This document shows, one piece after another, positions 49,879 to 64,000 of a stretch of DNA of 64,000 nt. The translations under genes and the position numbers were made by a program. Below the pieces are notes generated by a model, which saw only the letters and a program-made list of their open reading frames with translations, ran no database searches and had not been told where the DNA came from. This DNA comes from Pseudomonas baltica. GTDB lineage: Bacteria > Pseudomonadota > Gammaproteobacteria > Pseudomonadales > Pseudomonadaceae. The stretch covers positions 248,001 to 312,000 of the forward strand of contig NZ_CP134771.1 of NCBI RefSeq assembly GCF_031880315.1, read 5' to 3'. Each line of letters starts with the position of its first letter. Within the stretch, counting starts at the first letter, position 1.

Positions 49879-51405
49879 TCATCGCAACGGCAACAACTCA
49901 TCAATCCTGCTGTTGGGCCATGTCGGGAGCTTTTCCAACGTATCGCGCAGCCATGCCGACGGGGCAAGCCCATTAAGTTTCGCCGTCGCCAGCAAGCTCT
50001 GGATCGCAGCTGCGCGGCATCCCGCTCGCTCAGAGCCAGTAAACAACCAGTTCTTCTTACCCACCGCTATAGGCCTGATCACATTTTCAACTGCGTTGTT
50101 ATCGATAGGTAAATCACCGCTGCGGGCATAGCGTGACAACGCCACCCAGCGCTTGAGGCTGTAGTCCATCGCCTTGGCCAAGCTGCTGCCGTTCGCTACC
50201 CCTTGGCGGGTCGATAGCATCCACTCATGCATGTCTTGCAGCTTGGCCAGCGCCTCGCTGGTGCGCAGATGTTTGCGTGCATCACAGGTCAACATTTTTC
50301 CCCGTGATTCGATTTCGTACAATTGAGCGATCCGTAGTAAAGCCTCGGCAGCCACCGCGCTTTGATTGGCCGCATGCAATTCAAAAAACTTGCGCCGTGC
50401 ATGTGCCATACAACCCACTTCGGTAACGCCCTGAGTAAATAGCGCTTTGTAGCCCGCATAATCGTCAACGACCAAATGACCTTTCCAGTCATCCAGAAAA
50501 GCGCGTGCATGCGCACCGCTGCGCCCGGTCTGGTAATCAAATACGGTAATCCCCGGCCCGGGATCCAGGTCGTTACTGCGATAAACCCACAAATAGGCTC
50601 GCTTGGTTTTGCCTTTGCCAGGGTCAAGTTGCTGTACCGGTGTTTCGTCAGCATGCAGGATCAGGCGTTGGCGCAACAACTCGGCCAATCGATCCGCCAG
50701 CGGTTGCAGCGCAAATCCATAGCGGCCAACCCAGTCGGCCAAGGTTGATCGTGCCAGTGTGACGCCCGCACGCTGGGCGATCTGTTCAAGGCGATACAAC
50801 GGGAGATGATCGAGGTACTTGCTGATCAACACCCAGGTAATCAGTCCCGGAGCCGCCAGGCCGCCGTCGATGATGGCGGGAGGCACTTGTGCTGAAACAA
50901 TACGTTCGCAGGGTCGGCAGGCGTATTTGCTACGGATATGGCGATGCACGAAGAACTTGGCAGGCTCGACATCCAGTTGCTCGGTGATGTCTTCGCCCAC
51001 TTTTACCCATTCACCACCGCATTCAGGGCAACGGCAGGCCTCGGGCTTGTGGCGATGTTCAATACGTGGCAGATGTTCCGGCAGTGGTTGACGGCCGGCG
51101 CGAGAGCGCTGCGCTCGCTGTTGAGGCACGAGTGCCTCGACTTCTACTTCAATGGCGGCGCAGTCGGCATCGGCGGTTTCTTGAAATAAGTCTCGCTGCT
51201 CGGGCGACAACGCCTCGTTTCTGACGCCGAACCGAATACGCTTGTAATGAGCAAGTTCGAGGGTCAATGCCTGGATTTTCAACGCGTCATGTTGAGCCTG
51301 GGCACGTAGCTTATCGACATCGACCTGCTGTGAAAGCGCGGCCATGATCCTCTCCCGCAGGGCGGGATCAAGATTGAGGGCGGCGATTTCATCGGCGACT
51401 GGCAT
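49879..51405 (-). CDS. tnpC: IS66 transposase TnpC (inner element)
   Basis: 508 residues, intact, with the same zinc cluster (CRCPECGG) and DDE residues (HADETPVQ, VVDDYAGYKA, NNAVENVIRP) as the first copy but with conservative differences, especially in the first 120 residues. Confidence 0.95.
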   Translation of the reverse strand: MPVADEIAALNLDPALRERIMAALSQQVDVDKLRAQAQHDALKIQALTLELAHYKRIRFGVRNEALSPEQRDLFQETADADCAAIEVEVEALVPQQRAQRSRAGRQPLPEHLPRIEHRHKPEACRCPECGGEWVKVGEDITEQLDVEPAKFFVHRHIRSKYACRPCERIVSAQVPPAIIDGGLAAPGLITWVLISKYLDHLPLYRLEQIAQRAGVTLARSTLADWVGRYGFALQPLADRLAELLRQRLILHADETPVQQLDPGKGKTKRAYLWVYRSNDLDPGPGITVFDYQTGRSGAHARAFLDDWKGHLVVDDYAGYKALFTQGVTEVGCMAHARRKFFELHAANQSAVAAEALLRIAQLYEIESRGKMLTCDARKHLRTSEALAKLQDMHEWMLSTRQGVANGSSLAKAMDYSLKRWVALSRYARSGDLPIDNNAVENVIRPIAVGKKNWLFTGSERAGCRAAAIQSLLATAKLNGLAPSAWLRDTLEKLPTWPNSRIDELLPLR

Positions 51406-51469
51406 CCGTGGATTTTACTGAAAAAATCCACACTATCGTTATCTGCGAACGATATGAAAGAGTATTTCT

Positions 51470-51808
51470 CTACACTCTCCAGTCACTCATCGGACGAGCT
51501 TCCAATCGTTGCCAGTCAACGCCAGTGATCAGCCACTGCCATTGCGCCTGGGTCAATGTGAAGACTGTTTCGCCAGGGACAGGCCATACAAAAGTGCCTT
51601 CATGCAGACGGCGCTGGCTAAGCCAGACACCGGTGCCGTCCCATTGAAGAAGCTTGAGGCGGTTGCCTCGGCGATTACGAAAAGCATAAGCGGTGCCGTC
51701 GCACGGCGATCTTCCCAGCGCGTGTTGGACGCGCGACGAAAGACCATCGATGCCAAGGCGCATGTCCATCGGTTCAAGAATCAGCCAGACCTGTGCAGGC
51801 AATAGCAT
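51470..51808 (-). CDS. tnpB: IS66 TnpB (inner element)
   Basis: 112 residues, EPMDMRLGIDGL core, start ATG 51808 overlapping the tnpA stop as in the other copy. Confidence 0.9.
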   Translation of the reverse strand: MLLPAQVWLILEPMDMRLGIDGLSSRVQHALGRSPCDGTAYAFRNRRGNRLKLLQWDGTGVWLSQRRLHEGTFVWPVPGETVFTLTQAQWQWLITGVDWQRLEARPMSDWRV

Positions 51809-52113
51809 CAGCGCATCTCCTGGAGCAGATGGGCCAGCCACGCCGGATCTATCGTGCACGGCAATATCAGCTCCCAGCCGCTTGGATGTCTTAGCTTCAG
51901 CTCGCTTGCCGTGGCAACTTCACGTACGGCGATGGGCACTATCGTCAGGGTCTCGTTTTCCAGCTCGCGACTTCGAAACCAATAGCCAAATGATTTGGTG
52001 TTGATCTTGTGCCGCTCGCAGTAGGCAACTTGGGTCATGCCGCTGTTGCGCCATGCCTGGACATGTTCGGCCCAGAATGCGCGCCGTGCGGTGAGTCCGG
52101 CGGGTGGTTTCAT
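51808..52113 (-). CDS. tnpA: IS66 TnpA (inner element)
   Basis: 101 residues from ATG 52113 (AAGGAG upstream); helix-turn-helix RRAFWAEHVQAWRNSGMTQ then YCERHKINTKSFGYW. Confidence 0.9.
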   Translation of the reverse strand: MKPPAGLTARRAFWAEHVQAWRNSGMTQVAYCERHKINTKSFGYWFRSRELENETLTIVPIAVREVATASELKLRHPSGWELILPCTIDPAWLAHLLQEMR

Positions 52114-52315
52114 GTGTGCTCCTTCGTGGAAGGGCACAGCGTGGCGAGAGGCGGAGGGGAATCATAGGTGGCTGGGCTGGACGCTTACGGACGAAGCGAT
52201 TGTCCTGACTGTTCAGGAACTCAACTGGATGCTCGACGGCTTTGACCTCTGGCGTAACCGTCCTCATCAGGTTTTGACGCCACGATTCGTGGCCTGATTC
52301 GGTATAATCCAGGGC

Positions 52316-53902
52316 ATGAATTTCGTGCCCGACAACCCTCCTGATGATCCCGAGTTGCTCAAGCAGATGCTTGCGAAGATGCAATCCAGGATGGGCGTGC
52401 TCGAAGAACAAGTTGCACTGCTAAGGCAGCGCCTGTTTGGCCGAAAATCAGAGCAGGCCGTGGATCCGGCAACGCCTCAAATGGCGTTGTTCAATGAAGC
52501 GGAGCACGAGGTTGAGTTGGCGTGCGAGACCACTGAAGAAGAGGTCGTCGCACCCGCCAAGCGCCGTGGCAAGCGCAAGCCGTTGCCCGCTGACCTTGCG
52601 CGCATCGAGGTCATCCACGAACTGCCCGAACATGAGCTGACTTGCACTTGCGGCTGCCGCAAGCACGCCATCGGCGAGGAGATCAGCGAGCAGCTTGAAA
52701 TCGTCCCGATGCAGATCCGTGTCATCAAATACGTCCGCAAAGTCTATGGTTGCCGCGACTGCGAAGCCGCTCCGGTCACTGCGGACAAGCCAGCTCAATT
52801 GATTGAAAAAAGTATGGCCAGCCCGAGCGTTCTGGCGATGTTGCTGACCACCAAATATGTAGATGGCTTGCCGCTTCATCGGTTTGAAAAAGTATTAGGT
52901 CGCCACGGCATCGATATCCCGCGCCAAACCTTGGCTCGCTGGGTCATCCAGTGCGGCGCGCACTTACAGCCGCTACTGAATCTGATGCGCGATAGTCTGT
53001 TGGCCAGCCGCGTCATCCACTGTGATGAAACGCGGGTACAAGTGTTGAATGAGCCTGACCGCGAGCCAAGCAGCCAGTCATGGATGTGGGTGCAAACCGG
53101 CGGCCCACCGGATAAGCCGGTGATCCTTTTTGACTACTCCACCAGTCGAGCGCAGGAGGTACCGACGCGCCTGCTCGAAGGCTATCGCGGTTACGGCATG
53201 ACCGATGATTATGCCGGTTACAACGCACTGGGCGCTCAAGCTGGAGTTGAGCGTTTAGGATGCTGGGCTCATGCGCGTCGCAAATTCGTTGAAGCACAGA
53301 AAGTGCAGCCCAAAGGTAAAACGGGGCGCGCAGATATTGCTCTGAATCTGATCAACAAGCTTTACGGCATCGAACGCGACCTAAAAGCTTTCGGCGACAC
53401 TGAACGTAAGATCGGTCGTCACGAACAAAGCCTGCCGATACTGGCTCAGTTGAAAAGTTGGATCGAAAAGACGCAGCCACAGGTCACCGCTCAGAATGCC
53501 CTGGGCAAAGCCATCAGTTACCTCACCAGTAACTGAAGCAAGCTGGAGCGATACGTCGAGGAAGGCTACCTGCCGCTCGACAACAACGCCGCTGAACGCG
53601 CGATCCGCCCCTTCGTGATCGGAAGAAAGAACTGGCTGTTTAGCGACACGCACAAGGGCGCGACCGCCAGTGCTCAACTTTACAGCTTGGTCGAGACGGC
53701 TAAAGCCAACCGCCAAGAGCCATATGCGTGGCTGCGCCACGCATTAGAACGGCTGCCACTGGCGACATCGGCTGAAGATTACGAAGCCTTGCTGCCGTGG
53801 AACTGCCGCAACTGCATTCGTAAACGCGCCGCCCATCTTTGGCTAGATGAGGTTTATGGGCCTACAAGCAATCGGCGATGCGAGGGGCTCTCAAGATTTT
53901 GA
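52316..53902 (+). pseudogene. tnpC: TnpC of the outer IS66 element, nonsense-mutated
   Basis: The first 406 residues are a normal IS66 transposase of another subtype (Cys cluster CTCGCRK ... CRDCE; Asp in VIHCDETRVQ; Asp in MTDDYAGYNA). At codon 407 TGA (53534-53536) interrupts [19 protein letters not shown], where relatives have Trp. The same frame then continues to the catalytic Glu ([11 protein letters not shown]) and on to 53902. The tail after [10 protein letters not shown] looks foreign, suggesting 3' truncation. Confidence 0.88.
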
Positions 53903-54855: not shown

Positions 54856-55318
54856 TTACTTGTCTTCTTTGGCAATTGTCGCCAGCGCCGCATCCTTGAT
54901 CAAATACCGGCCCTCGACATCTTCAGGGTATTGCGAGACATCACGGAGCCCATGTCGACTTCCTGCTTGAGGTAAACGATTTGCCCCGCTTTGACCGAAA
55001 CAGTCAGGTCCGACCAGTTCTCGGCTTTGGAACTGATAACGTGCTGGCCCGGGGCGACGTAAAAATAAATGTATTGGTTGCGACGGTTGTAGCCCATTTG
55101 CGAAGCCGGTTCCTTGTTATCGAGGAACACGTAGAAGCGCACCGCCATCCCGACGTTGCTGGGTCGTATGACATAGACCAGTCCTTTGTCAGCGACAGCT
55201 GGCTTAGGAAGGGGGTAGTTCGCGAGCTCGGTCTGCATCTTGTCTGTGGGCGGTGATGCACCGCCGTAAATGAGGGCGATTAAGAAGGAATGCAGCGGAT
55301 TTGCAGAACAGCGTGATC
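54856..55318 (-). pseudogene. DUF2846-like lipoprotein gene with frameshifts
   Basis: The middle frame (54900-55238) encodes KGLVYVIRPSNVGMAVRFYV, then FLDNKEPASQMGYNRRNQYI, matching DUF2846 proteins. After DMGS the expected C-terminus, SQYPEDVEGRYLIKDAALA then TIAKEDK, lies in another frame ending at 54856. The signal-peptide part (ITLFCKSAAFLL ... IALIYGGA) is also split. Two frameshifts imply a dead gene. Confidence 0.65.
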
Positions 55319-55424: not shown

Positions 55425-55862
55425 CTATTCTCCGTCGATAGTCTCAATGCATACATAGATAGATACTATTTTAGCTAAATCCACCAAATCATCCATTTCT
55501 GGGGCATAAAATCTGACCGCATTGTTTAATATGTTAATTCCCGTCTCATCCTCCTCCTCTTCAAAATCTATTTCCATAATGGACAATCTAGACTTTACTT
55601 GCCCAATTGTTTTCCCTAGAAACTGACAATTGTTAATCCAGAACTTTGCCTTTAAAGCACTAAATTCTATACCGGTCAGAATATCACTTGCATCATAAAA
55701 AGCTCTCGCGACGATGTCACCGAAGGTATCTATTGAGTTTTCCGTAAACTCACTTTTGGGATGGGTTTTCCATTGACCTCCTATAGCTTTCCTTACGTAG
55801 CCTCTATCGTATTTTTTTTGGAATATTTCTAAGCCGTAACCAATTTTGAAAACGAAATCCAT
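55425..55862 (-). CDS. Immunity protein of CDI module 10
   Basis: 145 residues, very acidic C-terminal half (EIDFEEEEDETG), no recognised domain: MDFVFKIGYGLEIFQKKYDR at the start. ATG 55862 has GGAG five bases upstream and lies 8 bp after the stop of the preceding toxin tip, the standard toxin-immunity spacing. It is intact and is the last gene of the CDI array. Function as an immunity protein is inferred from position only. Confidence 0.65.
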   Translation of the reverse strand: MDFVFKIGYGLEIFQKKYDRGYVRKAIGGQWKTHPKSEFTENSIDTFGDIVARAFYDASDILTGIEFSALKAKFWINNCQFLGKTIGQVKSRLSIMEIDFEEEEDETGINILNNAVRFYAPEMDDLVDLAKIVSIYVCIETIDGE

Positions 55863-55870
55863 AATAGCTC

Positions 55871-56125
55871 CTATTTTGGCATGAAGTCGTTAGGATTGAG
55901 AGCTTTTACATGATCTTGCATTTGTTCTATAGCCTCGTCGTACTTAGTCCCAAACTTTCTTCTTATATCATTAATATCCATATCAACTGCCTCTTGCAAC
56001 TTTCCTTGTTGAAGCAACGCTTTTTGTTGTTCTCTATATGCTTTCGCAGCATCACCATTGCCAGCAGCAATCTTACTTACGGATAGAGAGGCTTGTGCAC
56101 TTAGATCAATTGCGCCCTTTGCACC
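55871..56125 (-). pseudogene. Orphan CdiA toxin tip, module 10 (open frame, no start)
   Basis: An open frame of 84 codons beginning at the shared Gly-Ala-Lys word (GGTGCAAAGG): GAKGAIDLSAQASLSVSKIA, then DMDINDIRRKFGTKYDEAIE and ALNPNDFMPK. Highly helical; resembles C-termini of polymorphic toxins, but I cannot name the activity. No start codon or ribosome site, so it is silent unless recombined onto cdiA. No internal lesion is visible. Confidence 0.65.
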
Positions 56126-56127
56126 AT

Positions 56128-56451
56128 CTAAACTCTAACGAACGCAAACTCCATCAAAATATCACTACCACTCATACTTTCAATAATTGCTCGACTCGCG
56201 CCTATCGACTTCAAAGCGAAATTCATTTCATTTAATGACGAAGAAAAGTCAACAACACAATCCATGTCTGGAATCCTCTTGTTTCCCTTGACTTTAAAAC
56301 CCTCAATACCAAGAATTGCAATATTGTTATTTTTGCAGTATTCGACCAGCCTAATTCCATCGCCAACATCAAACAAAGGAATGCCACTCCACATCAATGT
56401 AGGTGTAATAGTTAAATCCTCAACGGACACTTCAACTGCAATCAGTCCCAT
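56128..56451 (-). CDS. Immunity protein of CDI module 9 (partner of colicin-E5-like tip)
   Basis: 107 residues: MGLIAVEVSVEDLTITPTLM at the start, ending MEFAFVRV. It begins at ATG 56451 inside the last codons of the toxin tip (CCATGGGACTGA), overlapping its stop. Its neighbour is a colicin-E5-type RNase remnant, so it should bind that fold; I do not recognise it as ImmE5. The frame is intact although the toxin is broken. Confidence 0.7.
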   Translation of the reverse strand: MGLIAVEVSVEDLTITPTLMWSGIPLFDVGDGIRLVEYCKNNNIAILGIEGFKVKGNKRIPDMDCVVDFSSSLNEMNFALKSIGASRAIIESMSGSDILMEFAFVRV

Positions 56452-56722
56452 GGTGCAACCCACTCAGGATCTTTTTTATTGGAGACTTGGACAATCGCTC
56501 CCGTGCGATCATTTCTTACCACACAAGAACCATCCTTAGCGATATACCCAGTAGCTGGATCGTTAAGGCGGCTCCCCGACACAGTACCAAAGCGAGTATC
56601 TTTCGTAACAACCGTTTTGACTGGTTTATCGATTACAGACTATATAGAGCTTTCCGTCCAACCCCGTTTACCCATTGGTCGGCAATCTTTGGTTCAATCG
56701 TAATTGAAATTACTTTTGCACC
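56442..56722 (-). pseudogene. Colicin-E5-type tRNase toxin tip, module 9, broken
   Basis: From the shared GGTGCAAAAG word: GAKVISITIEPKIADQW ... then after a TAA and a frameshift, NKPVKTVVTKDTRFGTVSGS, RLNDPATGYIAKDGSCVVRN and DRTGAIVQVSNKKDPEWVAP. This is the colicin E5 RNase domain, which cleaves tRNAs with queuosine-type anticodons (Tyr, His, Asn, Asp). The lesions fall near the middle, so no active toxin can be made. Confidence 0.85.
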
Positions 56723-56735
56723 AAAAATAAAGCAG

Positions 56736-56990
56736 TTAATTATTTTTTAGCTGCCTGATCGGATCCCAATCATTAGGTTTGAGTTGATGCTTGCTCCACC
56801 ACTGCATCCCCTCAGAAACCCACTTTCCACGTAAATCGGAATGAGCGGCTGTCGAGTCATCATACCCAAATTCAGTCCCGCAGCATGGGCAAATATTGTA
56901 CGAGGCACAGCCAAAACTGTCATACGCCGGCTCATTAAGATCAGGATATTGGCATACCGGACATACATATTTTTGATTACTATTGAGCAT
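56736..56990 (-). CDS. CPCC-family cysteine-rich immunity protein, module 8
   Basis: 84 residues. YVCPVCQYPDLNEPAYDSFG then CASYNICPCCGTEFGYDD is the CPCC zinc-ribbon-like signature seen next to many polymorphic toxins. It starts at ATG 56990, about 48 bp beyond the premature stop of its toxin tip and close to where the tip would normally end. Intact. Confidence 0.8.
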   Translation of the reverse strand: MLNSNQKYVCPVCQYPDLNEPAYDSFGCASYNICPCCGTEFGYDDSTAAHSDLRGKWVSEGMQWWSKHQLKPNDWDPIRQLKNN

Positions 56991-57038
56991 TAAAATAGTC
57001 AAGTTTGAACCCTTACCATGCACTGCTGGGTTAGGTTT

Positions 57039-57470
57039 TTAGTACGTGCGAATACTTCCCCCACTTGATACGACCCCAAATTCATCGGTGCCAGGGTTGT
57101 AGCGTACGATATCTCCATTAGGTCTTGCTTTTTCAAGCACGCCCGCAGGCTTCGGGGCTGTTAAGAACTTATCAGCTTGTGCTTGGTACTCAAGCTTATT
57201 TTTCGCGCCAAAGTCACTGCCATGACGTGCAAACTGGTCATCAAGCTTGGCTTGGTCGGCAAAATTCGCTCCGCTTCCTGTCGCTTTTGCACCAACGACA
57301 TCCGCCCCTACACCACGATCGGAACTATTATACTCCTTCCAACCCGGATGATAAGGGTCTGCCTTCATCTCGGGCGAAACCGTGACGGTTTTCCCCGCTC
57401 CGCTCTTCGCCCAAAGCGCACCAATCCCTGCTGCGGCCGTACCAGCGACCGCAGCAATGGCGCCTGGGGT
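57039..57470 (-). pseudogene. Toxin tip of module 8 with premature stop
   Basis: The fragment starts right after a terminator and carries the long CdiA linker (IGALWAKSGAGKTVTVSPEM, KADPYHPGWKEYNSSDRGVG, ADVVGAK), then the toxin FARHGSDFGAKNKLEYQAQA, DKFLTAPKPAGVLEKARPNG, TDEFGVVSSGGSIRTY. The frame then hits TAA where related tips I recall read on as FKP; the following bases still encode KPNPAVHGKGSN. The loss of the extreme C-terminus may inactivate it. I know this tip from other polymorphic toxins but cannot name its biochemical activity from sequence. Confidence 0.7.
57293..57468 (-). repeat. Direct repeat of the CdiA linker region (copy in module 8)
   Basis: About 175 bp nearly identical to 63406-63583 in cdiA, encoding from GAIAAVAG to VGAK. 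A shorter copy (about 93 bp) is at 60568-60660. The three repeats share orientation, so homologous recombination between them could move an orphan tip onto cdiA. Confidence 0.88.
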
Positions 57471-57471
57471 G

Positions 57472-57496
57472 CAAAAACACCGGCCAAGGCCGGTGT
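57472..57496 (-). terminator. Repeated array terminator T1
   Basis: On the minus strand ACACCGGCCTTGGCCGGTGT is followed by TTTTGC. It lies after the module 7 immunity gene. Near-identical copies are at 59691-59715 and 60993-61017. Confidence 0.8.
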
Positions 57497-57530
57497 AGAT
57501 AGTGCCTGATCAAAATAGGTATATTGAAAA

Positions 57531-57761
57531 TTACATCCGTCGAATATCAGATAAAAATTCATGAAACTCGTTTTCTGCCATCTCAAACTCTGGCCCTTCG
57601 ACCATTGCCATTAGTGACAACAACGCAGTATCTAAATTCTTCGTGAGAGAAAAATTCGGATCTTGATAAATTTTAAGCGCCTCTTTTGCTATCTTAAAAA
57701 TATCAAACCCATCAGCAGCTATTCTTCCAAGCCTATCAGCCACCAAGTCTTCCATACTCAT
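57531..57761 (-). CDS. Immunity protein of CDI module 7
   Basis: 76 residues, helical: MSMEDLVADRLGRIAADGFD, IFKIAKEALKIYQDPNFSLT, ending FLSDIRRM. ATG 57761 overlaps the stop of the decayed toxin (ATGA). No domain recognised. The open frame is kept although the toxin has several stops. Confidence 0.6.
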   Translation of the reverse strand: MSMEDLVADRLGRIAADGFDIFKIAKEALKIYQDPNFSLTKNLDTALLSLMAMVEGPEFEMAENEFHEFLSDIRRM

Positions 57762-58294
57762 AGCTGCTCCCAACTCTTTAGCTCTGCTCCGGTCGGAGGG
57801 CGGTGTTGAGCATCAACCGACTGCCCATTAATACTTTTCAGGTGGACACGAATTATTTCTCCTGAATGGTCGTAGCTCTCCATCCACTGCCTCGTACTGC
57901 CCGTTCTAGAATCAAACTCCGTGGCGAAATAAGCACCTCAAGTCGGTCCTGCTGTCCTAGCATGAACCTCGTGTGTGTAGTAACGAATGCGACAATCAGG
58001 AATGTTCTAGTAATCGCTGCTGTTCCTTGAGCCTTTTGTAGTCCTGATAGTTTGCCCCCCTTCTATAGTCAACGACGCGGAGGGCTGCCCTGTGGACGTT
58101 GAAGATGCATAGAATCGATAGGACTTCTCTCCATTAGTTAACACAGTAACTGAGCCATCCTGAGAAATTGTCTTTTTATAACCATTAGAATCAAGGGTCT
58201 TTATAGCGCGGCCCTAAGTAATGTTGGCCTCTATCTGCCCCGCACTATTCCGCGTAACTTTCGGCAAAAACTCAATCGATGTTGCTTTTGCACT
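57758..58294 (-). pseudogene. Toxin tip of module 7, three in-frame stops
   Basis: It starts at the shared word (AGTGCAAAAG): AKATSIEFLPKVTRNSAGQI, then TAG; later SYRFYASSTSTGQPSASLTI, TAG again, RIRYYTHEVHARTAG, TGA, and finally GAYFATEFDSRTGSTRQWME to GAELKSWEQL and stop. One frame carries the whole protein, interrupted by three nonsense codons. Family not recognised. Confidence 0.7.
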
Positions 58295-58326
58295 TTATCG
58301 CATTCTAAATAACACCTTGAACCTTG

Positions 58327-58788
58327 TTAATTTAAGTCTGGCCATTGTAAAAGATGATTGCCTATTGATGCAATTAAGAAGCTTGAAAAGCCATCCCAAG
58401 TTTTAGTCATCGAATTCTGGCCTTCAAAAAACTGAAATACTGGCGGATCGTCAGAAATCGGTAGGAAATAATTAATTTCATATCCTTGATGCATGCAGAA
58501 TACCTTAGCATCCGTAGGCAGCAAATCGGACAGACCTAACTCATCAAGCAACTCATCCGCCTCAACCTTTAGGCTAAGTAATCTCGGATAAAATATATCA
58601 ACACCACAAAAAATCTTACCAGCCGAACGCCCCGCAATCGTCAAAAACTCACGATATGCCAAAGGAACTTTACAACCAAAATTTTGCTCGATTGATGCAA
58701 TCTCCACTTCTGAGCAACCAACAAGAGTAGAATTTAAAATTACTCCCCGCAGCACTAACTCATGAAAAATGTCCCGAACGTTTTTCAT
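58327..58788 (-). CDS. SUKH (SMI1/KNR4) immunity protein, module 6
   Basis: 153 residues. VGCSEVEIASIEQNFGCKVP then LAYREFLTIAGRSAG is the SMI1/KNR4 signature of SUKH immunity proteins, which often pair with nucleic-acid deaminase or nuclease tips. ATG 58788 overlaps the toxin's stop (ATGA), consistent with coupling. Intact. Confidence 0.85.
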   Translation of the reverse strand: MKNVRDIFHELVLRGVILNSTLVGCSEVEIASIEQNFGCKVPLAYREFLTIAGRSAGKIFCGVDIFYPRLLSLKVEADELLDELGLSDLLPTDAKVFCMHQGYEINYFLPISDDPPVFQFFEGQNSMTKTWDGFSSFLIASIGNHLLQWPDLN

Positions 58789-59199
58789 CTTGGCTTTCCT
58801 GTTTCTACGTTAACAATCACACCGGGGAACCTTTGTTGAAACTGACTTATAACCCCGCTGCACGAAACGCAAACTGGGAGGTCTGAGTAAATATTTACGA
58901 CCCCTTGTGACGAGGGGGTTAGCTTATCTGCCAAACTCGACAATTTTTATACTCTGAGTCCATTATCCTTGGATCTTTACCAGTTTGTATTGTGTCGAAG
59001 ACCTGTTTTTCAGGGACATCGACCGTTCCAAGGCGCTTCGCTAGCCCGCTTACCCCTACAAGCTCAGCGCTTTGTCCATCAATTGAATACTCAGCAACAG
59101 CAATATTCCTACCGCTACCAACGTTTAGCTCCCAGCGAACTTACATCGCACGTTCAGATAATCTTGCTATTCATAGGCGGCGGCGGCCTCTTTTGCACA
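58785..59199 (-). pseudogene. Nucleic-acid deaminase toxin tip, module 6, broken
   Basis: It begins at a variant of the shared word (TGTGCAAAAG). After stops it reads VRWELNVGSGRNIAVAEYSI, DGQSAELVGVSGLAKRLG, DPRIMDSEYK, then shifts frame to LSSLADKLTPSSQGVVNIYS, DLPVCVSCSGVISQFQQRFP and VETGKPR. The SGRNIAVAEY strand, an acidic DSEYK strand and the PVCVSC zinc motif fit the bacterial-toxin deaminase fold. At least two nonsense codons and one frameshift are present. Confidence 0.75.
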
Positions 59200-59210
59200 A
59201 GTGGCTTAAG

Positions 59211-59585
59211 CTATTTTTCCAGCAGATCCTCGACCGTAAGCCTATCAATTTCTCTGAAGACTACTTCTATCTCGTGCCCTTGGTCACCAACCCAATTAGA
59301 GACCGCGTCACGTAAAATCTCAAGGTATACCTGTAGATCATCTCTTGGCAATTCTGGAAGAGTCACATGTACAAGGACGATTTTGTGGCATGGAATCCAG
59401 CTAAGATCTCTTAAGCAATCGTATAAGGCATCCCAGTTAAATCCAAAATACCCTGGCAACCAAAGTAGGTAATACAGCGCTCTTATCAATTCCTCTGCAA
59501 TCCCAATGGACGGGTCAATCCGCACATAAAAAACCTCGGCCGCGTCATATGAAGGCGGGATGTCCACAAACTTGAATGGCAACAT
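59211..59585 (-). CDS. Barstar-family RNase inhibitor, module 5 immunity
   Basis: 124 residues. ALYYLLWLPGYFGFNWDALY then DCLRDLSWIP is the barstar signature (the helix that plugs the barnase active site). DDLQVYLEILRDAVSNWV follows. ATG 59585. Its cognate barnase-type toxin survives only as a C-terminal stub immediately upstream. Intact, cytoplasmic. Confidence 0.9.
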   Translation of the reverse strand: MLPFKFVDIPPSYDAAEVFYVRIDPSIGIAEELIRALYYLLWLPGYFGFNWDALYDCLRDLSWIPCHKIVLVHVTLPELPRDDLQVYLEILRDAVSNWVGDQGHEIEVVFREIDRLTVEDLLEK

Positions 59586-59595
59586 TTTCGACAGG

Positions 59596-59690
59596 CCTCA
59601 ATTTTTATCGGGATGAAGGTTTTGTAGTGGTCAGCTGTGTAATACATTTCGCCGCCTTTTCCTACGACGATTCGGGTACATATAAGGTGC
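59596..59690 (-). pseudogene. C-terminal stub of a barnase-type RNase toxin, module 5
   Basis: About 28 residues, RIVVGKGGEMYYTADHYKTF then IPIK, match the end of microbial RNases of the barnase family, including the catalytic His in DHYKTF. Everything upstream is replaced by an array terminator, so only the last strand remains. Confidence 0.8.
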
Positions 59691-59715
59691 AAAAACACCG
59701 GCACAAGGCCGGTGT
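59691..59715 (-). terminator. Repeated array terminator T2
   Basis: ACACCGGC-CTTGT-GCCGGTGT followed by TTTTTGCACC on the minus strand, after the module 4 immunity gene. Confidence 0.8.
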
Positions 59716-59749
59716 CGAAAGTGTCAGATCAAGTTGAAACTTCTACAAC

Positions 59750-60208
59750 TCACCAAACCTCATGGGTCTCGGCTCTGTAATTCTTTTCAATACGCTCAAC
59801 AAGCAATGGCGCACTGATAATTCCTCTTGTGGAATGCTTCAGTTCTTCCGAGCTAATCTCTCTCTCCAGCCGAAGCGCTTCGCTTCCATTCCATAGCCAA
59901 ATAGAGCCTCCCGGCCCGCCATTCCTGGAACGGAACGTAGGAAACACTTGTAACTTTTCGGGAACCGGAACATTTGCCACAACGGATAGAAGGCCCTGAT
60001 TTACCGCACTTTGAACAACAAAAAATGCGGAAAATTGTGGTTCACCATCAACAACAACCGAAAAATCTTTTGGTTTTTCATTATGAAACCCGGGGAAAAT
60101 ACGTATTAAAAAACCAAATTCCGGATGCTTATGAGTAACCTGGGCATATGCGACACCCTGCGAGGTTAACACCTGCAAAATGTCGCCCAGCTTTACCTTC
60201 TTAGCCAT
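59750..60208 (-). CDS. Immunity protein of module 4 (Imm26-like)
   Basis: 152 residues. MAKKVKLGDILQVLTSQGVA, YAQVTHKHPEFGFLIRIFPG, FSAFFVVQSAVNQGLLSVVA then VPVPEKLQVFPTFRSRNG resembles the Imm26 family. Its ATG follows directly on the toxin's TAA (TAAATG), so translation is coupled. Intact, with an intact toxin tip. Confidence 0.75.
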   Translation of the reverse strand: MAKKVKLGDILQVLTSQGVAYAQVTHKHPEFGFLIRIFPGFHNEKPKDFSVVVDGEPQFSAFFVVQSAVNQGLLSVVANVPVPEKLQVFPTFRSRNGGPGGSIWLWNGSEALRLEREISSEELKHSTRGIISAPLLVERIEKNYRAETHEVW

Positions 60209-60660
60209 TTAAAATCCTTCATATCCAGCTCTTTTCAGCAGCTCGGCGCCGCGAATCAAACCCTGCTCATAATTAGTCGGGTTTTTGACAGACGATATAG
60301 AGTTAATCTTATTGATCAACGTGCCGCCATCTTTACCAAGGCCATGGTAGTCGATCAGTGTTTGCTCTACTGCCCGTGCGTCAGCACGTGAAAGGTTCTG
60401 TAAACCCTCTATTCTGTCAATCGTGATGCCTTTTTCTCTGAGGTGAGCTTGACCGCGCTTAGCTATGTCGTCGGTTATTCCGACATAACGAGTCACGCCA
60501 TCAACAACACAGTTATAAACACAGGTCTTTCCACCTATAGAGGCAACTTCACCTGCGCCTTTTGCCCCAACAACATCCGCCCCTACCCCACGATCGGAGC
60601 CATTATACTCCTTCCAACCCGGATGATAAGGGTCTGCCTTCATCTCGGGCGAAATCGTCA
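60209..60660 (-). CDS. GIY-YIG nuclease toxin tip, module 4 (no proper start)
   Basis: Open frame with the CdiA linker (VTISPEMKADPYHPGWKEYN, GSDRGVGADVVGAK) followed by a GIY-YIG-type domain: CVYNCVVDGVTRYVGITDDI (the two Tyr strands), KRGQAHLREKGITIDRIEGL, SRADARAVEQTLIDYHGLG (catalytic Glu) and INKINSISSVKN. Intact to its stop. Upstream it is fused out of frame to a CdiA repeat fragment, and the only ATGs available (60688, 60678) lack ribosome sites, so it is probably a silent cassette. Confidence 0.8.
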
Positions 60661-60663
60661 CCC

Positions 60664-60983
60664 CCACGCACCACAACATTCCCCGCACCTACCGTCGCGC
60701 GGACGATCTGCTGGCGATCCTTGTCGTACTTGTAACCCGAGGCACTCCAGCCGGCTTCGCCGGTTTTACCCTTGCCGACCTGACTGCTGTCCTGCTGGGC
60801 GCTCGCGCCACCAGTGGCATAGCTCCCGCCAACATTCAGGTAATAGGCGTGCTCGGTATCCTTGCCCGCGATATCGCTGAAGCCCAGCGTGCCGGTATCG
60901 AGCAACAGCTTCCCGGCATCCGATGCGATCAATGCTCCATCAAGCTGGGTGTGATCCTGGAAAAGAGTGCAATCAGGGTACAT
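60664..60983 (-). pseudogene. Internal fragment of a CdiA filamentous-haemagglutinin repeat
   Basis: FQDHTQLDGALIASDAGKLL, LDTGTLGFSDIAGKDTEHAY, YLNVGGSYATGG and SASGYKYDKDRQQIVRATVG are typical of the FHA-like repeat region preceding CdiA pretoxin domains. The fragment starts right after terminator T3 and is fused, one frame out, to the module 4 linker. So a piece of a whole cdiA 3' region, not just a tip, was once copied here with an internal deletion. Confidence 0.8.
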
Positions 60984-60992
60984 ATAGGGTGC

Positions 60993-61017
60993 AAAAACAC
61001 CGGCGCAAGGCCGGTGT
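60993..61017 (-). terminator. Repeated array terminator T3
   Basis: ACACCGGC-CTTGC-GCCGGTGT followed by TTTTTGCACC on the minus strand, downstream of the module 3 immunity gene. Confidence 0.8.
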
Positions 61018-61076
61018 CAGTGTGATACAAACTCATTGCATGTCAGTAAAATCTGGGGCTTTTACTGATGAGCAAA

Positions 61077-61337
61077 CTACTCCTCGATCAACCCCAGCGC
61101 TTCGCCCAAGCTTTCCACAAACTCTGCCTGCTCATCTGAATACTCTATTGCGATGCTTTTAAACTGTGAGCACAAAGATGATTTAGATTCCAAGTCCATC
61201 ATTTGCAATGTCGAAGCTAATTGTTCAAGCCCCTGCATTGCAGCATCTGGATTTAATGCATCATCCCCCGAAAACTCAAGAAATATAGCAAGCTCAACAA
61301 TGGCTCGCGCAACGTGCTTATTGATTTCCTGGCTCAC
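61077..61337 (-). CDS. Immunity protein of CDI module 3
   Basis: 86 residues, acidic and helical: MSQEINKHVARAIVELAIFL, ending EFVESLGEALGLIEE. GTG 61337 overlaps the end of the toxin tip by 20 bp (AAGGTGATTC upstream is a fair ribosome site). No family recognised. Intact although its toxin has a nonsense codon. Confidence 0.65.
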   Translation of the reverse strand: MSQEINKHVARAIVELAIFLEFSGDDALNPDAAMQGLEQLASTLQMMDLESKSSLCSQFKSIAIEYSDEQAEFVESLGEALGLIEE

Positions 61338-61755
61338 GAATCACCTTCACTGAAATATTTTTAATGCCCAGCTCATCAAACATTTTCTGAGCTCTATTTG
61401 CTTGAGCCTGTGTAGGTACTTCCCAGCGCGCAGTTAAAGCATTCTGACTTAACACGTCAGACTGCCTAAGCGCCTGGTCCTTCTATTTGCTCGTCGTTAC
61501 AACCGAAATCTTGCGATCAACTAAAACTTCACCATCCACACCATCGAATTTAACCAACCTTATTGATCCATCCGGCATTGTTCTTTCTAGCGCAGGAGCT
61601 TGGCCAGATTGGGTTGCAGGATTGGAGCGAGCACCCGTTGCTGAGTCATTGTAATCACGGGCACGCGAACTCATACCTGCATTCTCATCAACCCACTTGA
61701 CCTTAGTTGACGCAAGATCATCTACCTTACCGGCAGCGCCAGTTGCTTTTGCACC
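61318..61755 (-). pseudogene. Restriction-endonuclease-like toxin tip, module 3, with in-frame TAG
   Basis: From the shared word: GAKATGAAGKVDDLASTKVK, then ERTMPDGSIRLVKFDGVDGE, VLVDRKISVVTTSK, TAG (61483-61485), and on in the same frame KDQALRQSDVLSQNALTARW, TQAQANRAQKMFDELGIKN to EPGNQ. The FDG...VLVDRKIS segment resembles the D-x(n)-(D/E)xK core of REase-fold toxins. A single nonsense codon separates catalytic core from C-terminus. Confidence 0.75.
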
Positions 61756-61761
61756 AACAAA

Positions 61762-62160
61762 TTATGAAGCAAACAAACAGCCGTTTTCGTCCACCCAAAT
61801 GATGCCTGGCACTTCATAAAAATACAGTGTGAGTGCTTCGTCACTTTCACTCACAACACCTTCCGGCCACTTATCTTTCAAGTAAGACACGATCTGCTTC
61901 GCATCCAAACTCCAGTGAGACTCTTCATCATTAATCGAAAACCTGGGGTGCGGATTATCCGAAGAAATATAGCAATCCGCATTTGGCGCGATAAATTTTA
62001 TTTTTCCGGTAACAAGCAGATATTCGATCACAGAAAAAAAAGCATCTTTTTGCTGAGAGAACGATAGCTCAGGATTCCATGAACCAATGGCGCTGAAAAG
62101 TGCCGATATCCACAGACCAAATGAATCACGCACTATTTCTTCAACAAACTTAGTATCCAT
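61762..62160 (-). CDS. Immunity protein of module 2 (DUF596-like)
   Basis: 132 residues. LSFSQQKDAFFSVIEYLLVT then GKIKFIAPNADCY, and YFYEVPGIIWVDENG near the end, resemble DUF596 proteins found beside polymorphic toxins. ATG 62160 overlaps the toxin stop (TAATG). Intact. Confidence 0.7.
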   Translation of the reverse strand: MDTKFVEEIVRDSFGLWISALFSAIGSWNPELSFSQQKDAFFSVIEYLLVTGKIKFIAPNADCYISSDNPHPRFSINDEESHWSLDAKQIVSYLKDKWPEGVVSESDEALTLYFYEVPGIIWVDENGCLFAS

Positions 62161-62549
62161 TATGGATTTCCAATCAGGAATTTTATTTCTGGATTATACG
62201 TCGTGCCTGTGGCGGCTTTAGGCACATCGATAGTCCAGGCTGGACCAGTCTGACCAGATGAAGAGGAAAAATTCCGAAGCGTGAAATTTCCTTCAGGCGT
62301 ATTAACAACATATATATCCCCTTTCCCAGGAATAGTACGAGGAGAAGGCAAGCCTGTCGAGCCTGTCAATTCCGAAAAATACTGCTTAACTTCCACATCT
62401 GTTGCACCAGAAAATATTTTTGCATTTCCTGTGTTTGGAACCTCAATGAGCGAGCGGTCTCCAATTTGAATACCGCTCCTAGTACTGGAAGAGCTAAACA
62501 GCTCCGTTATTTCGGTACTGCGGGTTATGCTTGGAATGCCTTTTGCACC
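62160..62549 (-). pseudogene. Orphan CdiA toxin tip, module 2 (open frame, no start)
   Basis: 129 codons open from the shared GGTGCAAAAG word: GAKGIPSITRSTEITELFSS, VEVKQYFSELTGSTGLPSPR, GKGDIYVVNTPEGNFTLRNF, SGQTGPAWTIDVPKAATGTT. No lesion, but no upstream CdiA sequence or start codon. Activity not recognised. Its immunity gene follows with a one-base overlap. Confidence 0.7.
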
Positions 62550-62555
62550 AACTCA

Positions 62556-62960
62556 TCAACTGTCGCTCTGATTCAAAATCTTTACCTCGCGCCAGTAAAT
62601 ATTTTCTGGTAAAGGCTGATTCTGATTGAATCGGGAGAAAACTTCGATCACATCGTCAATATTAAACCACTCATCTTTCTTTAATTGAACACGCCCTGCA
62701 CCAAACGACAGCAAGCTCCCATCTTCAAAGTTCGTGCTAGAATTTGAATGATATCCTCTAAACAGAGCTTTACTTTTTGCGTCATATCTTTCAATAAAGC
62801 AAGTGAATCTGCCTCCTGCCACTTGCACATAATTACCGTCGTCGTCAGTTATGCATGCGTATGAGCTTGGACCGTAGCTTTTTAATTTTTTTAACACTTT
62901 TACAAGCTGCGCCTGGTTGACGTCAATTAATACGGGACTATTTTCGGCTTCGAGCTTCAT
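62556..62960 (-). CDS. cdiI: CdiI immunity protein of the cdiA-linked module 1
   Basis: About 134 residues: MKLEAENSPVLIDVNQAQLV, KVLKKLKSYGPSSYACITDD, GRFTCFIERYDAKSKALF. ATG 62960 has AAGGTGAGG just upstream; GTG 62975 (overlapping the cdiA stop as GTGA) is an alternative. It should neutralise the nuclease tip of the adjacent CdiA. No named family recognised. Confidence 0.75.
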   Translation of the reverse strand: MKLEAENSPVLIDVNQAQLVKVLKKLKSYGPSSYACITDDDGNYVQVAGGRFTCFIERYDAKSKALFRGYHSNSSTNFEDGSLLSFGAGRVQLKKDEWFNIDDVIEVFSRFNQNQPLPENIYWREVKILNQSDS

Positions 62961-62971
62961 ATTCCTCACCT

Positions 62972-64000
62972 TCACGGCACATAAACTGTTGTAGCGCTTT
63001 CGATGACTTCGCCTTTTAGCCGTCCCTTCCCTTGCGCCCCAAACTGATTGACAAAATAATCGGTGAATTCTTGATAGCTGGTCTTACTAGCAGTTCCGCT
63101 TTTCACCTCAAGACCGTGTAATTTACCATTTGCGTCACGGACTACAATGTCATACCTACGATCACCGAGAGGCCCTTTAACGACCATCTCAGTGCCTACA
63201 ACTTCCATTCCATTTGCTTCTAAATGCTTAGCAAACTCATCTGCCTTAACTGTTCCCGGAGGAGCTAGACCCTTCGGGCTAGCAAATTTTCCGTCAGGGG
63301 TTCGATAGCTTCCATCTGAATGCAGATTTACTTCGGGGGCTAGGTCGGTCTCTGGACCAACTTTCTTCCCGCCCGTCGCATCTGGGCTTGCTACCTCTTT
63401 TGCACCAACAACATCCGCCCCTACCCCACGATCGGAGCCATTATACTCCTTCCAATCCGGATGATAAGGGTCTGCCTTCATCTCGGGCGAAATCGTCACG
63501 GTTTTCCCCGCTCCGCTCTTCGCCCAAAGCGCACCAATCCCTGCTGCGGCCATACCAGCGACCGCAGCAATGGCGCCTGATATCAAAAATTTTGCGCCGA
63601 TCACTTCCGCCGAGCCATTCATACCATCGTTGCCTGACTTGGCGTATTCCTGTTTCCCCTCTTCGTTATTCTCGACTACCAGCTCAACGTCCTGATCCGT
63701 CAGCACGTTTACAATCTTCGTCGCTCCATTCTCCACCAACCGCTCGGCGGTTGGGCCTAGCGTATGTTCGAATACGACGGAACCCAGATATCCAGCAGCG
63801 GCTGTTACCGGTCCCAGGGCGACTTGGACCGCCAACATCCCAGCTGCAATTTGCTCTTTTGGCACCATGACACTGAATTTGGCAACATTTATCAGTGCAT
63901 CTTGATAAAGGTTGTTATGTATGTAGGTGTTATCCAGTTGAATCGACGGATTCCCGTTTTTATCCAAAACTGTGGTGGATGTTGATGTTCCTGGCAGTGG
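62972..64000 (-). CDS. cdiA: CdiA-type contact-dependent inhibition toxin, C-terminal part (5' end outside window)
   Basis: The frame is open from the right window edge to 62972. It carries the pretoxin region (QIAAGMLAVQVALGPVTAAA), the VENN motif in DVELVVENNEEGKQEY, a glycine/alanine-rich hydrophobic stretch (GAIAAVAGMAAAGIGALWAK), the linker VTISPEMKADPYHPDWKEYN ... GADVVGAK, and a toxin tip. The tip (RRYDIVVRDANGKLHGLEVK at its core, then EFTDYFVNQFGAQGKG) resembles a PD-(D/E)XK nuclease: Asp ... Glu-x-Lys. CdiA is secreted by CdiB and delivers this tip into neighbouring cells. The stop overlaps or abuts cdiI. Confidence 0.88.
   Translation of the reverse strand, partial: PLPGTSTSTTVLDKNGNPSIQLDNTYIHNNLYQDALINVAKFSVMVPKEQIAAGMLAVQVALGPVTAAAGYLGSVVFEHTLGPTAERLVENGATKIVNVLTDQDVELVVENNEEGKQEYAKSGNDGMNGSAEVIGAKFLISGAIAAVAGMAAAGIGALWAKSGAGKTVTISPEMKADPYHPDWKEYNGSDRGVGADVVGAKEVASPDATGGKKVGPETDLAPEVNLHSDGSYRTPDGKFASPKGLAPPGTVKADEFAKHLEANGMEVVGTEMVVKGPLGDRRYDIVVRDANGKLHGLEVKSGTASKTSYQEFTDYFVNQFGAQGKGRLKGEVIESATTVYVP

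What the first reader, a model, noticed from the sequence alone, without database searches (positions are those of the whole stretch)
55425..64000. CDI locus with a tail of nine extra toxin-tip/immunity modules
Seen: after the cdiA 3' end, nine further units follow in one direction, each a toxin-tip fragment then a small gene abutting or overlapping it. Known: cdiA-CT/cdiI orphan modules occur downstream of cdiA in several proteobacteria. Unusual here are the number (ten tips with the cdiA one), the compactness (about 8.5 kb) and the diversity: REase-like, GIY-YIG, barnase, deaminase, E5-type RNase and several unrecognised tips. Inference: an archive for toxin switching and for protection against many rivals.
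Basis: partly seen in the sequence, partly recalled or inferred. Interest (0 to 1): 0.92.

Follow-up and report, generated by a model that had tools for sequence, protein, structure and literature searches.

The report
Toxin-cassette array with shared 10-base joint
A Pseudomonas genome carries a contact-killing gene followed by nine spare toxin-and-antidote modules, and the same ten-letter DNA word marks the start of nearly every spare and recurs at matching joints in other Pseudomonas genomes, which suggests where these bacteria cut and splice their toxins.

Summary
A complete cdiB and a 4208-codon cdiA are followed by nine more toxin-tip/immunity units on the same strand (55425-62552). Arrays of this kind are known (up to eleven orphan pairs in E. 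coli EC869).

Not found in my literature searches: the DNA word GGTGCAAAAG (codes G-A-K; up to 1 mismatch) opens the tip of cdiA and of 8 of 9 orphan units. In 54 held-out TPS/cdiA loci from 27 other genomes of the genus it has the largest strand excess of any 10-mer: 35 copies on the cdiA strand, 1 opposite, 1.5 expected. In 20 loci from other genera it occurs once. It joins unrelated backbones, tips and immunity ends: 43 of 50 flank families seen in at least two genomes have more than one partner across it, against 9-20 of 42-53 at control positions. Four orphan units have relatives that are the tip of a full-length CdiA elsewhere.

Only 3 of 9 orphan tips here are open to the end; all 9 immunity frames are. 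I read this as an immunity store and a record of past tip exchange, formed by recombination anchored in cdiA and closed at the short core. The enzyme and any present-day switching are not shown.

The parts
62972..64000 (-). 3' end of cdiA (continues beyond the window, 4208 codons in all) with VENN and live tip T0 (REase-like) after the G-A-K core
63397..63406 (-). Core GGTGCAAAAG at the backbone/tip border of cdiA
62556..62975 (-). Cognate immunity gene I0
   Evidence: dN/dS 0.08-0.10 against three relatives
62163..62549 (-). Unit 1: core (62540-62549, exact) plus open tip T1; tip of a full-length CdiA in G121 and G067
61762..62160 (-). Immunity I1
61318..61755 (-). Unit 2: core (exact) plus tip T2 interrupted by an in-frame stop
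61077..61337 (-). Immunity I2
60976..61018 (-). Hairpin plus T-run (terminator-like) ending in the reverse complement of the first nine bases of the core; first of three copies, the only three of its 16-base signature in the genome
60658..60960 (-). 303-bp copy of cdiA interior (99% identical) fused before unit 3
60209..60688 (-). Unit 3: backbone remnant, core variant GGGGCAAAAG (60559-60568), open GIY-YIG-like tip T3; tip of a long CdiA frame in G046 and G188
59750..60208 (-). Immunity I3
59674..59716 (-). Second terminator-like copy
59600..59680 (-). Unit 4: C-terminal remnant (~26 residues) of a barnase-like tip; no core
59211..59597 (-). Immunity I4, barstar
   Evidence: E=5e-18
58785..59199 (-). 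Unit 5: core variant TGTGCAAAAG (59190-59199) plus broken deaminase tip T5
58327..58788 (-). Immunity I5, SMI1/KNR4 (SUKH)
   Evidence: E=3e-12
57758..58294 (-). Unit 6: core variant AGTGCAAAAG (58285-58294) plus broken, apparently composite tip T6
57531..57773 (-). Immunity I6
57468..57499 (-). Third terminator-like copy
57284..57466 (-). Copy of the cdiA pre-tip backbone (94% identical to the cdiA copy) before unit 7, ending in the exact core (57284-57293)
57042..57290 (-). Unit 7: tip T7, homologue of 8ey4_A, cut short by an early stop relative to the copy in MWU16-30317
56736..57023 (-). Immunity I7, Cys-rich; weak matches to Rad50 zinc hook (E=5e-5, below cut-off) and to CPCC protein 8ey3_A (E=0.11)
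56442..56722 (-). Unit 8: core (exact, 56713-56722) plus frameshifted colicin E5 tip T8; tip of a full-length CdiA in G107
56128..56463 (-). Immunity I8
55871..56125 (-). Unit 9: core variant GGTGCAAAGG (56116-56125) plus open tip T9
55425..55862 (-). Immunity I9, end of the array

Best explanation
This is a contact-dependent growth inhibition (CDI) locus. The CdiA stick carries one live tip (T0), and nine displaced tip/immunity units trail behind it. Shown by sequence: the unit that moves is [core - tip - immunity gene - short spacer], its border is the 10-bp core GGTGCAAAAG in frame with the tip, and that border has been reused with different partners across genomes of the genus. Inferred: incoming DNA recombines by long homology within cdiA on one side and is resolved at the short core on the other (homology-facilitated illegitimate recombination). 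The newcomer becomes the live tip, and the old tip and immunity gene are pushed downstream. Units that kept a piece of backbone or follow a terminator (3, 4, 7) came through other, longer breaks. Also inferred: the old immunity genes are kept because they protect against kin and rivals that still use those tips, while the silent tips decay.
For: cdiB and full cdiA. Nine orphan units, immunity frames open 9 of 9, tips open to the end 3 of 9. Core at the tip start in 8 of 9 orphan units plus cdiA, at most 1 mismatch; 9 such words on the coding strand of the 7.6-kb tail (8 at junctions, 1 inside T1; 3 on the other strand) against a mean of 0.55 and a maximum of 4 in 300 Markov sequences. Held-out test: 54 loci of 27 genomes, 35 coding against 1 opposite, 1.5 expected. 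All 60 loci: 47 against 1; at least two copies in 11 loci against 0. Synonymous-codon test: GGTGCAAAA 51 against 6, all other G-A-K spellings together 117 against 70. Reassortment across the core: 19 of 22 left families and 24 of 28 right families have more than one partner. Unit 1 is followed by three different units in three genomes (own, G003, G121) after a similar short spacer. The relative MWU16-30317 has a 99% identical backbone and shares units 7-9 at 97% from exactly the core of unit 7, with different DNA to the left.
Against: No recombination event was observed and no enzyme is identified. Switching is not confined to the core: at +100 bases 16 of 22 left families also have more than one partner (though only 4 of 27 right families), so some exchange happens inside the first part of the tip. 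22 of the loci in that test were fetched because they share sequence with this window, so its counts are not an unbiased rate. The core leads only among 10-mers: among 8- and 12-mers other words have a larger strand excess, and the next 10-mers, apparently repeat words of the stick, are close (31 against 0, 32 against 2) though in fewer loci. Weak conservation after the core (up to 0.8 bit) means part of the signal may be a shared linker. dN/dS is low for tips and immunity genes alike, so it does not show that these orphan immunity genes are selected here. Unit 4 has no core. 43 of 60 sampled loci have no exact core.
Confidence: 0.62

Rival explanations
1. Ordinary homologous recombination only. 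New tips come in through long homology in the cdiA backbone and in shared downstream modules; the core is merely the best preserved end of an ancestral linker.
For: Units 3 and 7 carry pieces of cdiA backbone. Weak linker similarity extends after the core in many tips. Recombination through shared cdiA/VENN sequence is proposed for E. coli in PMC3150448 and PMC4927057 (passages).
Against: Most flank families on either side of the core have non-homologous partners, and the strongly shared stretch is about 10 bases, below what I recall as the usual RecA minimum. Six of nine orphan units start at the core 2-32 bases after an immunity stop with no backbone remnant.
Confidence: 0.22
2. Site-specific cassette system: a recombinase recognises the core and inserts circular [tip-immunity] cassettes at cdiA, as integrase does for integron cassettes.
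For: A short fixed core at the cassette borders, one orientation, and in one comparison (MWU16-30317) the cdiA-distal side is kept while the proximal side differs.
Against: No strongly conserved flanks around the core. In the four inter-unit spaces that I read in other arrays I saw cdiA fragments and, in two, what look like IS3-type and RAYT-like transposases, not a shared recombinase (by eye, no family search). Units 3, 4 and 7 have irregular borders.
Confidence: 0.1
3. The core is a peptide hinge (G-A-K) kept for protein reasons, such as folding or cleavage; its DNA identity reflects recent common descent.
For: It is in frame at the backbone/tip border of the long CdiA frames examined.
Against: Single-base variants are not enriched for synonymous changes: the excess over the opposite strand is 19 synonymous (24-5) against 51 non-synonymous (74-23), close to the 7 of 27 that I count for random changes; in variants anchored behind an ORF stop, 7 synonymous and 16 non-synonymous (opposite strand 0 and 4). 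Long CdiA frames carry GTK, GPK, DAK and SAK. The spelling GGTGCAAAA dominates in these genomes.
Confidence: 0.12

Closest known systems
Orphan cdiA-CT/cdiI arrays of E. coli and Yersinia (Poole et al. 2011, PMC3150448; passages read)
   Same: cdiBAI followed by same-strand tip/immunity pairs; most tips lack starts; orphans match main tips of other strains; up to eleven pairs.
   Different: There recombination is proposed at the VENN-encoding sequence. Here VENN lies 90 residues upstream of the border, which is a 10-bp core that also follows unrelated pre-tip domains in which I see no VENN.
Pseudomonas CDI systems (Mercy et al. 2016, PMC4725963; passages read)
   Same: cdiB-cdiA-cdiI; several pre-toxin classes within Pseudomonas.
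   Different: They define the border by five peptide motifs and report orphan modules as limited to P. aeruginosa.
T6SS immunity-gene arrays of Vibrio cholerae (Kirchberger et al. 2017, PMC5361080; passages read)
   Same: Stepwise displacement, immunity genes outlast effectors, illegitimate recombination proposed.
   Different: They describe recombination without specific integration sites; here a specific short joint is seen.
Acinetobacter type-II cdi orphan regions (PMC6336857; passages read)
   Same: Displaced remnants in 5'-3' order, mostly immunity genes.
   Different: No shared short DNA joint in the passages that I read.
Integron gene cassettes (recalled)
   Same: Array of cassettes separated by a short shared core.
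   Different: No integrase seen next to the array, no strongly conserved flanks of the core, irregular borders at three units.

Membership tests
CDI (two-partner secretion, cdiBAI) | CdiB-type Omp85 transporter next to cdiA | tested here: met
   ShlB E=3e-92 and two POTRA domains in L007
CDI (two-partner secretion, cdiBAI) | Large CdiA with TPS domain and haemagglutinin repeats | tested here: met
   TPS E=1.3e-56, open frame 4208; Fil_haemagg_2 E=3e-51
CDI (two-partner secretion, cdiBAI) | Polymorphic C-terminal toxin with adjacent immunity gene | tested here: met
   Tip T0 and I0; backbone 99% shared with MWU16-30317, whose tip differs
CDI (two-partner secretion, cdiBAI) | Contact-dependent killing neutralised by CdiI | not testable with these tools
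   needs competition assay
Orphan cdiA-CT/cdiI module array | Several tips or tip remnants each with an immunity gene downstream, same strand | tested here: met
   nine units
Orphan cdiA-CT/cdiI module array | Orphan tips related to live CdiA tips elsewhere | tested here: met
   4 of 9 units: U1 G121/G067, U3 G046/G188, U4 G070, U8 G107
Orphan cdiA-CT/cdiI module array | Border at VENN-encoding DNA (E. coli type) | tested here: not met
   border is the G-A-K core, 90 residues after VENN; VENN appears in no orphan unit in the translations
Integron | Dedicated integrase beside the array | tested here: inconclusive
   none seen by eye in 50-64 kb or in four inter-unit spaces read elsewhere; no family or genome-wide search was made
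Integron | attC-like folded recombination sites | tested here: inconclusive
   flanks of the core hold at most 0.8 bit per position; no folding or attC model was run on the junctions

The most novel reading that the evidence does not exclude
Pseudomonas cdi loci share a dedicated exchange site: GGTGCAAAAG is recognised by an unidentified recombination machinery that adds, removes and reorders tip/immunity cassettes across species and across unrelated CdiA backbones, making a genus-wide cassette pool of warheads and antidotes.
Probability: 0.17. Interest if true: 0.85.

Novelty: new variant of a known kind. Interest (0 to 1): 0.6.

Why it matters
How polymorphic toxins swap their tips while keeping the old antidotes is an open question; the published models that I saw invoke homologous recombination at VENN or illegitimate recombination without fixed sites. 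A fixed short joint, found at the matching place in many genomes of one genus and with different delivery backbones, gives a concrete sequence to test, a simple way to find and delimit tip/immunity cassettes in genomes, and a predicted crossover point for strain-to-strain change.

Tried and rejected
NCBIfam gave nothing useful for tips or immunity proteins. PDB sequence searches found nothing for T1, T2 and T3 and only chance-like hits for T9 and I0. Four requests for a structure prediction of T1 met a full queue, so there is no fold evidence. dN/dS was tried as evidence for selection on orphan immunity genes and does not discriminate: tips 0.03-0.55 (leaving out T2, aligned over 12-16 codons, and T7, no synonymous change), immunity genes 0-0.33; the first T3 values were in a wrong frame and were redone. 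Promoter and terminator scan: counts not above shuffles (14 against 13.3; 6 against 9.1), so I make no claim on orphan promoters; the hairpins rest on repeats and folding. A 300-residue cdiA 3' query was a poor anchor (11 of 398 genomes), so the TPS domain was used. An age gradient of decay along the array was considered and dropped: the open tips are units 1, 3 and 9.

Rows dropped: the match tables are best-first and partly cut by the tool. From the printed rows I took by hand 62 places in genomes of at most 10 contigs, leaving out the three G080 places with short frames, and fetched 60, leaving out two G018 places. In some searches three overlapping loci were left out (L115, L134, L141) and 22 loci found through similarity to the window were added; 28 of 487 inner left ends and 42 of 416 right ends of shared blocks lay within 20 bases of a core in both loci (random mean 0.05, for left ends only); the rest looked mostly like chromosome or backbone synteny, and the printed list was cut. 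The control is 20 loci from 16 genomes, two of them only 1.3 and 2.7 kb long.
Full report
WHAT IS THERE. The window is bases 248001-312000 of a 6.63-Mb single-contig genome. That it is a Pseudomonas is an inference: the two named loci with this cdiA region both come from Pseudomonas sp. MWU16-30317, a mobile locus being weak ground for a genus name; the G genomes called 'same genus' by the tool are unnamed. Just beyond the window lie a complete cdiB (ShlB E=3e-92, POTRA domains) and the rest of cdiA, an open frame of 4208 codons with a TPS domain. cdiA ends at 62972 on the - strand. After its own immunity gene (62975-62556) come nine further immunity genes down to 55425, all on the same strand, each with a tip or tip remnant in front. 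G+C falls from about 0.6 at 40-49 kb to 0.37-0.57 over the array.

THE TIPS. T0 (live) resembles the C-terminus of an Rhs protein of solved structure (7q97_A, E=4e-4). T3 is weakly GIY-YIG (E=0.0099, under Pfam's cut-off), T5 is the end of a toxin deaminase (E=7e-10), T8 is colicin E5 (E=1e-17) (PDB colicin E5). T7 matches 8ey4_A, a PT-VENN protein, and its partner I7 weakly matches 8ey3_A, a CPCC protein (E=0.11), and the Rad50 zinc hook (E=5e-5, below cut-off). T4 is a remnant of about 26 residues before a clear barstar. I5 is a SUKH protein. T1, T2 and T9 have no credible family match; T6 was searched only in part. Open to the end: T1, T3, T9 (3 of 9 orphan tips). Disrupted: T2 (in-frame stop), T4 (remnant), T5 and T6 (stops and frame changes), T7 (early stop; a longer copy exists in MWU16-30317), T8 (frame change; an unbroken relative is the tip of a CdiA in G107). 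Immunity frames are open in 9 of 9; I7 shows one length difference against two relatives.

ORPHANS ARE TIPS OF CdiA ELSEWHERE. Units 1, 3, 4 and 8 have relatives at the C-terminus of a long CdiA frame in other genomes: U1 in G121 (tip 97.9% identical DNA) and G067, U3 in G046 and G188, U4 in G070, U8 in G107. In G121, G067, G046, G070 and G107 the frame carries a TPS domain; for G188 only the frame length, 3494 codons, was seen. These are 4 of the 9 orphan units, found by searching 194 relatives with the tail (31 with a match) and 398 genus members with the pre-tip region (21 with a match).

THE SHARED JOINT. Reading the junctions showed the word GGTGCAAAAG, in frame as G-A-K with the tip, at the tip start of cdiA and, with at most one mismatch, of 8 of 9 orphan units; unit 4 has lost that end. 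Six orphan units (1, 2, 5, 6, 8, 9) begin at the core 2-32 bases after the previous immunity stop. The tail holds nine such words on the coding strand (eight at junctions, one inside T1) and three on the other strand, against 0.55 on average and at most 4 in 300 Markov sequences. The genome holds 29 exact copies, against 8 of the reversed control word; five are here and four lie in 1.4 kb of a second cdi-like locus at 836.7-838.1 kb with a different backbone.

HELD-OUT TEST. From the TPS search (119 of 149 genus genomes positive) I chose 62 places in genomes of at most 10 contigs and fetched 60 three-prime regions of 12.5 kb. GGTGCAAAAG occurs 47 times on the cdiA strand and once on the other; two or more copies in 11 loci against none; 43 of 60 loci have none. 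Leaving out the window's genome and three genomes used for discovery, 54 loci of 27 genomes give 35 against 1 in 14 loci against 1, with 1.5 expected from dinucleotides. It has the largest strand excess of any 10-mer; the next ones (31 against 0 in 9 loci, 32 against 2 in 7 loci), which look like repeat words of the stick, are close, and among 8-mers and 12-mers other words lead. In 20 loci from other genera of the class (16 genomes; two loci cut short by contig ends) it occurs once. Neighbouring loci share modules, so copies are not all independent; removing near-duplicates leaves 68 distinct contexts of 80, these 80 including ten loci found through similarity to the window.

DNA RATHER THAN PEPTIDE. 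Among all spellings of G-A-K, GGTGCAAAA is 51 against 6 by strand, the rest together 117 against 70. One-base variants show a strand excess of 51 non-synonymous and 19 synonymous, 27% synonymous, against 7 of 27 (26%) that I count for random changes. Long CdiA frames have GTK, GPK, DAK or SAK at this place in some genomes. In the 19 sites printed the domains in front of the core are varied and VENN was found within 300 codons in 4.

REASSORTMENT. Clustering the 150 bases on each side of 182 cores (up to one mismatch; 57 sampled loci and 22 found through similarity), 19 of 22 left-flank families and 24 of 28 right-flank families seen in at least two genomes are joined to more than one partner. 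Controls: 4 of 21 and 5 of 21 at -160; 16 of 22 and 4 of 27 at +100; 11 of 28 and 4 of 25 at +160; 9 of 27 and 4 of 22 at +220. So the core is the strongest, not the only, place of exchange. Unit 1 is followed by three different units in three genomes (own, G003, G121) after a similar spacer. In MWU16-30317, with the same backbone at 99%, units 7-9 are kept at 97% from exactly the core of unit 7, and the DNA to the left differs: there the cdiA-proximal side has turned over and the distal side stayed. That assembly breaks inside the locus, so its full order is unknown.

OTHER JOINTS. Units 3, 4 and 7 are preceded by a hairpin-plus-T-run that ends in the reverse complement of the first nine bases of the core (folding z -3.3, -3.8, -2.4). 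Its 16-base signature occurs only three times in the genome, all here. Among the 79 loci the word GGTGTTTTTGCACC occurs six times on the cdiA strand (three here, one each in three other arrays) and three times on the other. Units 3 and 7 carry pieces of cdiA backbone after it, including a 303-bp copy of the cdiA interior. These came through longer, irregular breaks. If the hairpins terminate transcription, distal immunity genes need their own promoters; this was not settled.

MECHANISM. Shown: the unit, its border and its reuse. Inferred: insertion by recombination anchored in cdiA and closed at the core, and retention for immunity. A plain cut-and-rejoin between cores would swap the tip but delete intervening immunity genes, which Poole 2011 pointed out for VENN (PMC3150448, passages); this and the decay of six tips argue that the array is first an antidote store and a record, and only secondarily a store of weapons. 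dN/dS does not separate these.

LITERATURE SEEN. Passages only of PMC3150448, PMC4725963, PMC5361080, PMC6336857, PMC4927057 and PMC3482391. In nine searches, including the letters GGTGCAAAAG, no title or abstract start in the listings describes this joint; the letter search returned 133 papers, of which I saw 15, unrelated by title. Subscription papers and preprints are not in the library. Mercy 2016 states that orphan modules are limited to P. aeruginosa among the Pseudomonas examined; the present arrays extend that at least to MWU16-30317 and, if the genus inference holds, to several unnamed species.

CHANGES ON CHECKING.

VERDICT. Known kind (orphan CDI array, not record-sized), with a feature at its joints that I did not find described, statistically firm within the genus sample and mechanistically open.

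Noticed in passing
G000:C1:835800-841100 (L150), outside the window: A second cdi-like locus in the same genome: a 1112-codon cdiA 3' fragment without a TPS match, ending in a core-started tip, followed by three more exact cores and further variants on the same strand.
   Followed up: partly
window 60976-61018, 59674-59716, 57468-57499: Hairpin plus T-run ending in TTTTTGCACC, whose last nine bases are the reverse complement of the first nine bases of the core; its 16-base signature occurs only three times in the genome, all in this array.
   Followed up: partly
window 62975-63397: The live tip matches the C-terminus of an Rhs protein of solved structure (7q97_A), so related tips are probably used by two delivery systems.
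   Followed up: no
window 49879-53902: IS66-type transposase genes and remnants (recognised by eye) next to the distal end of the array.
   Followed up: no
window 54900-55238: A small DUF2846 protein (E=1e-11) just beyond the array end.
   Followed up: no
L078:11705-12897 and L121:6823-7527: Genes that look by eye like an IS3-type transposase and a REP-associated transposase lie between units in two other arrays.
   Followed up: no
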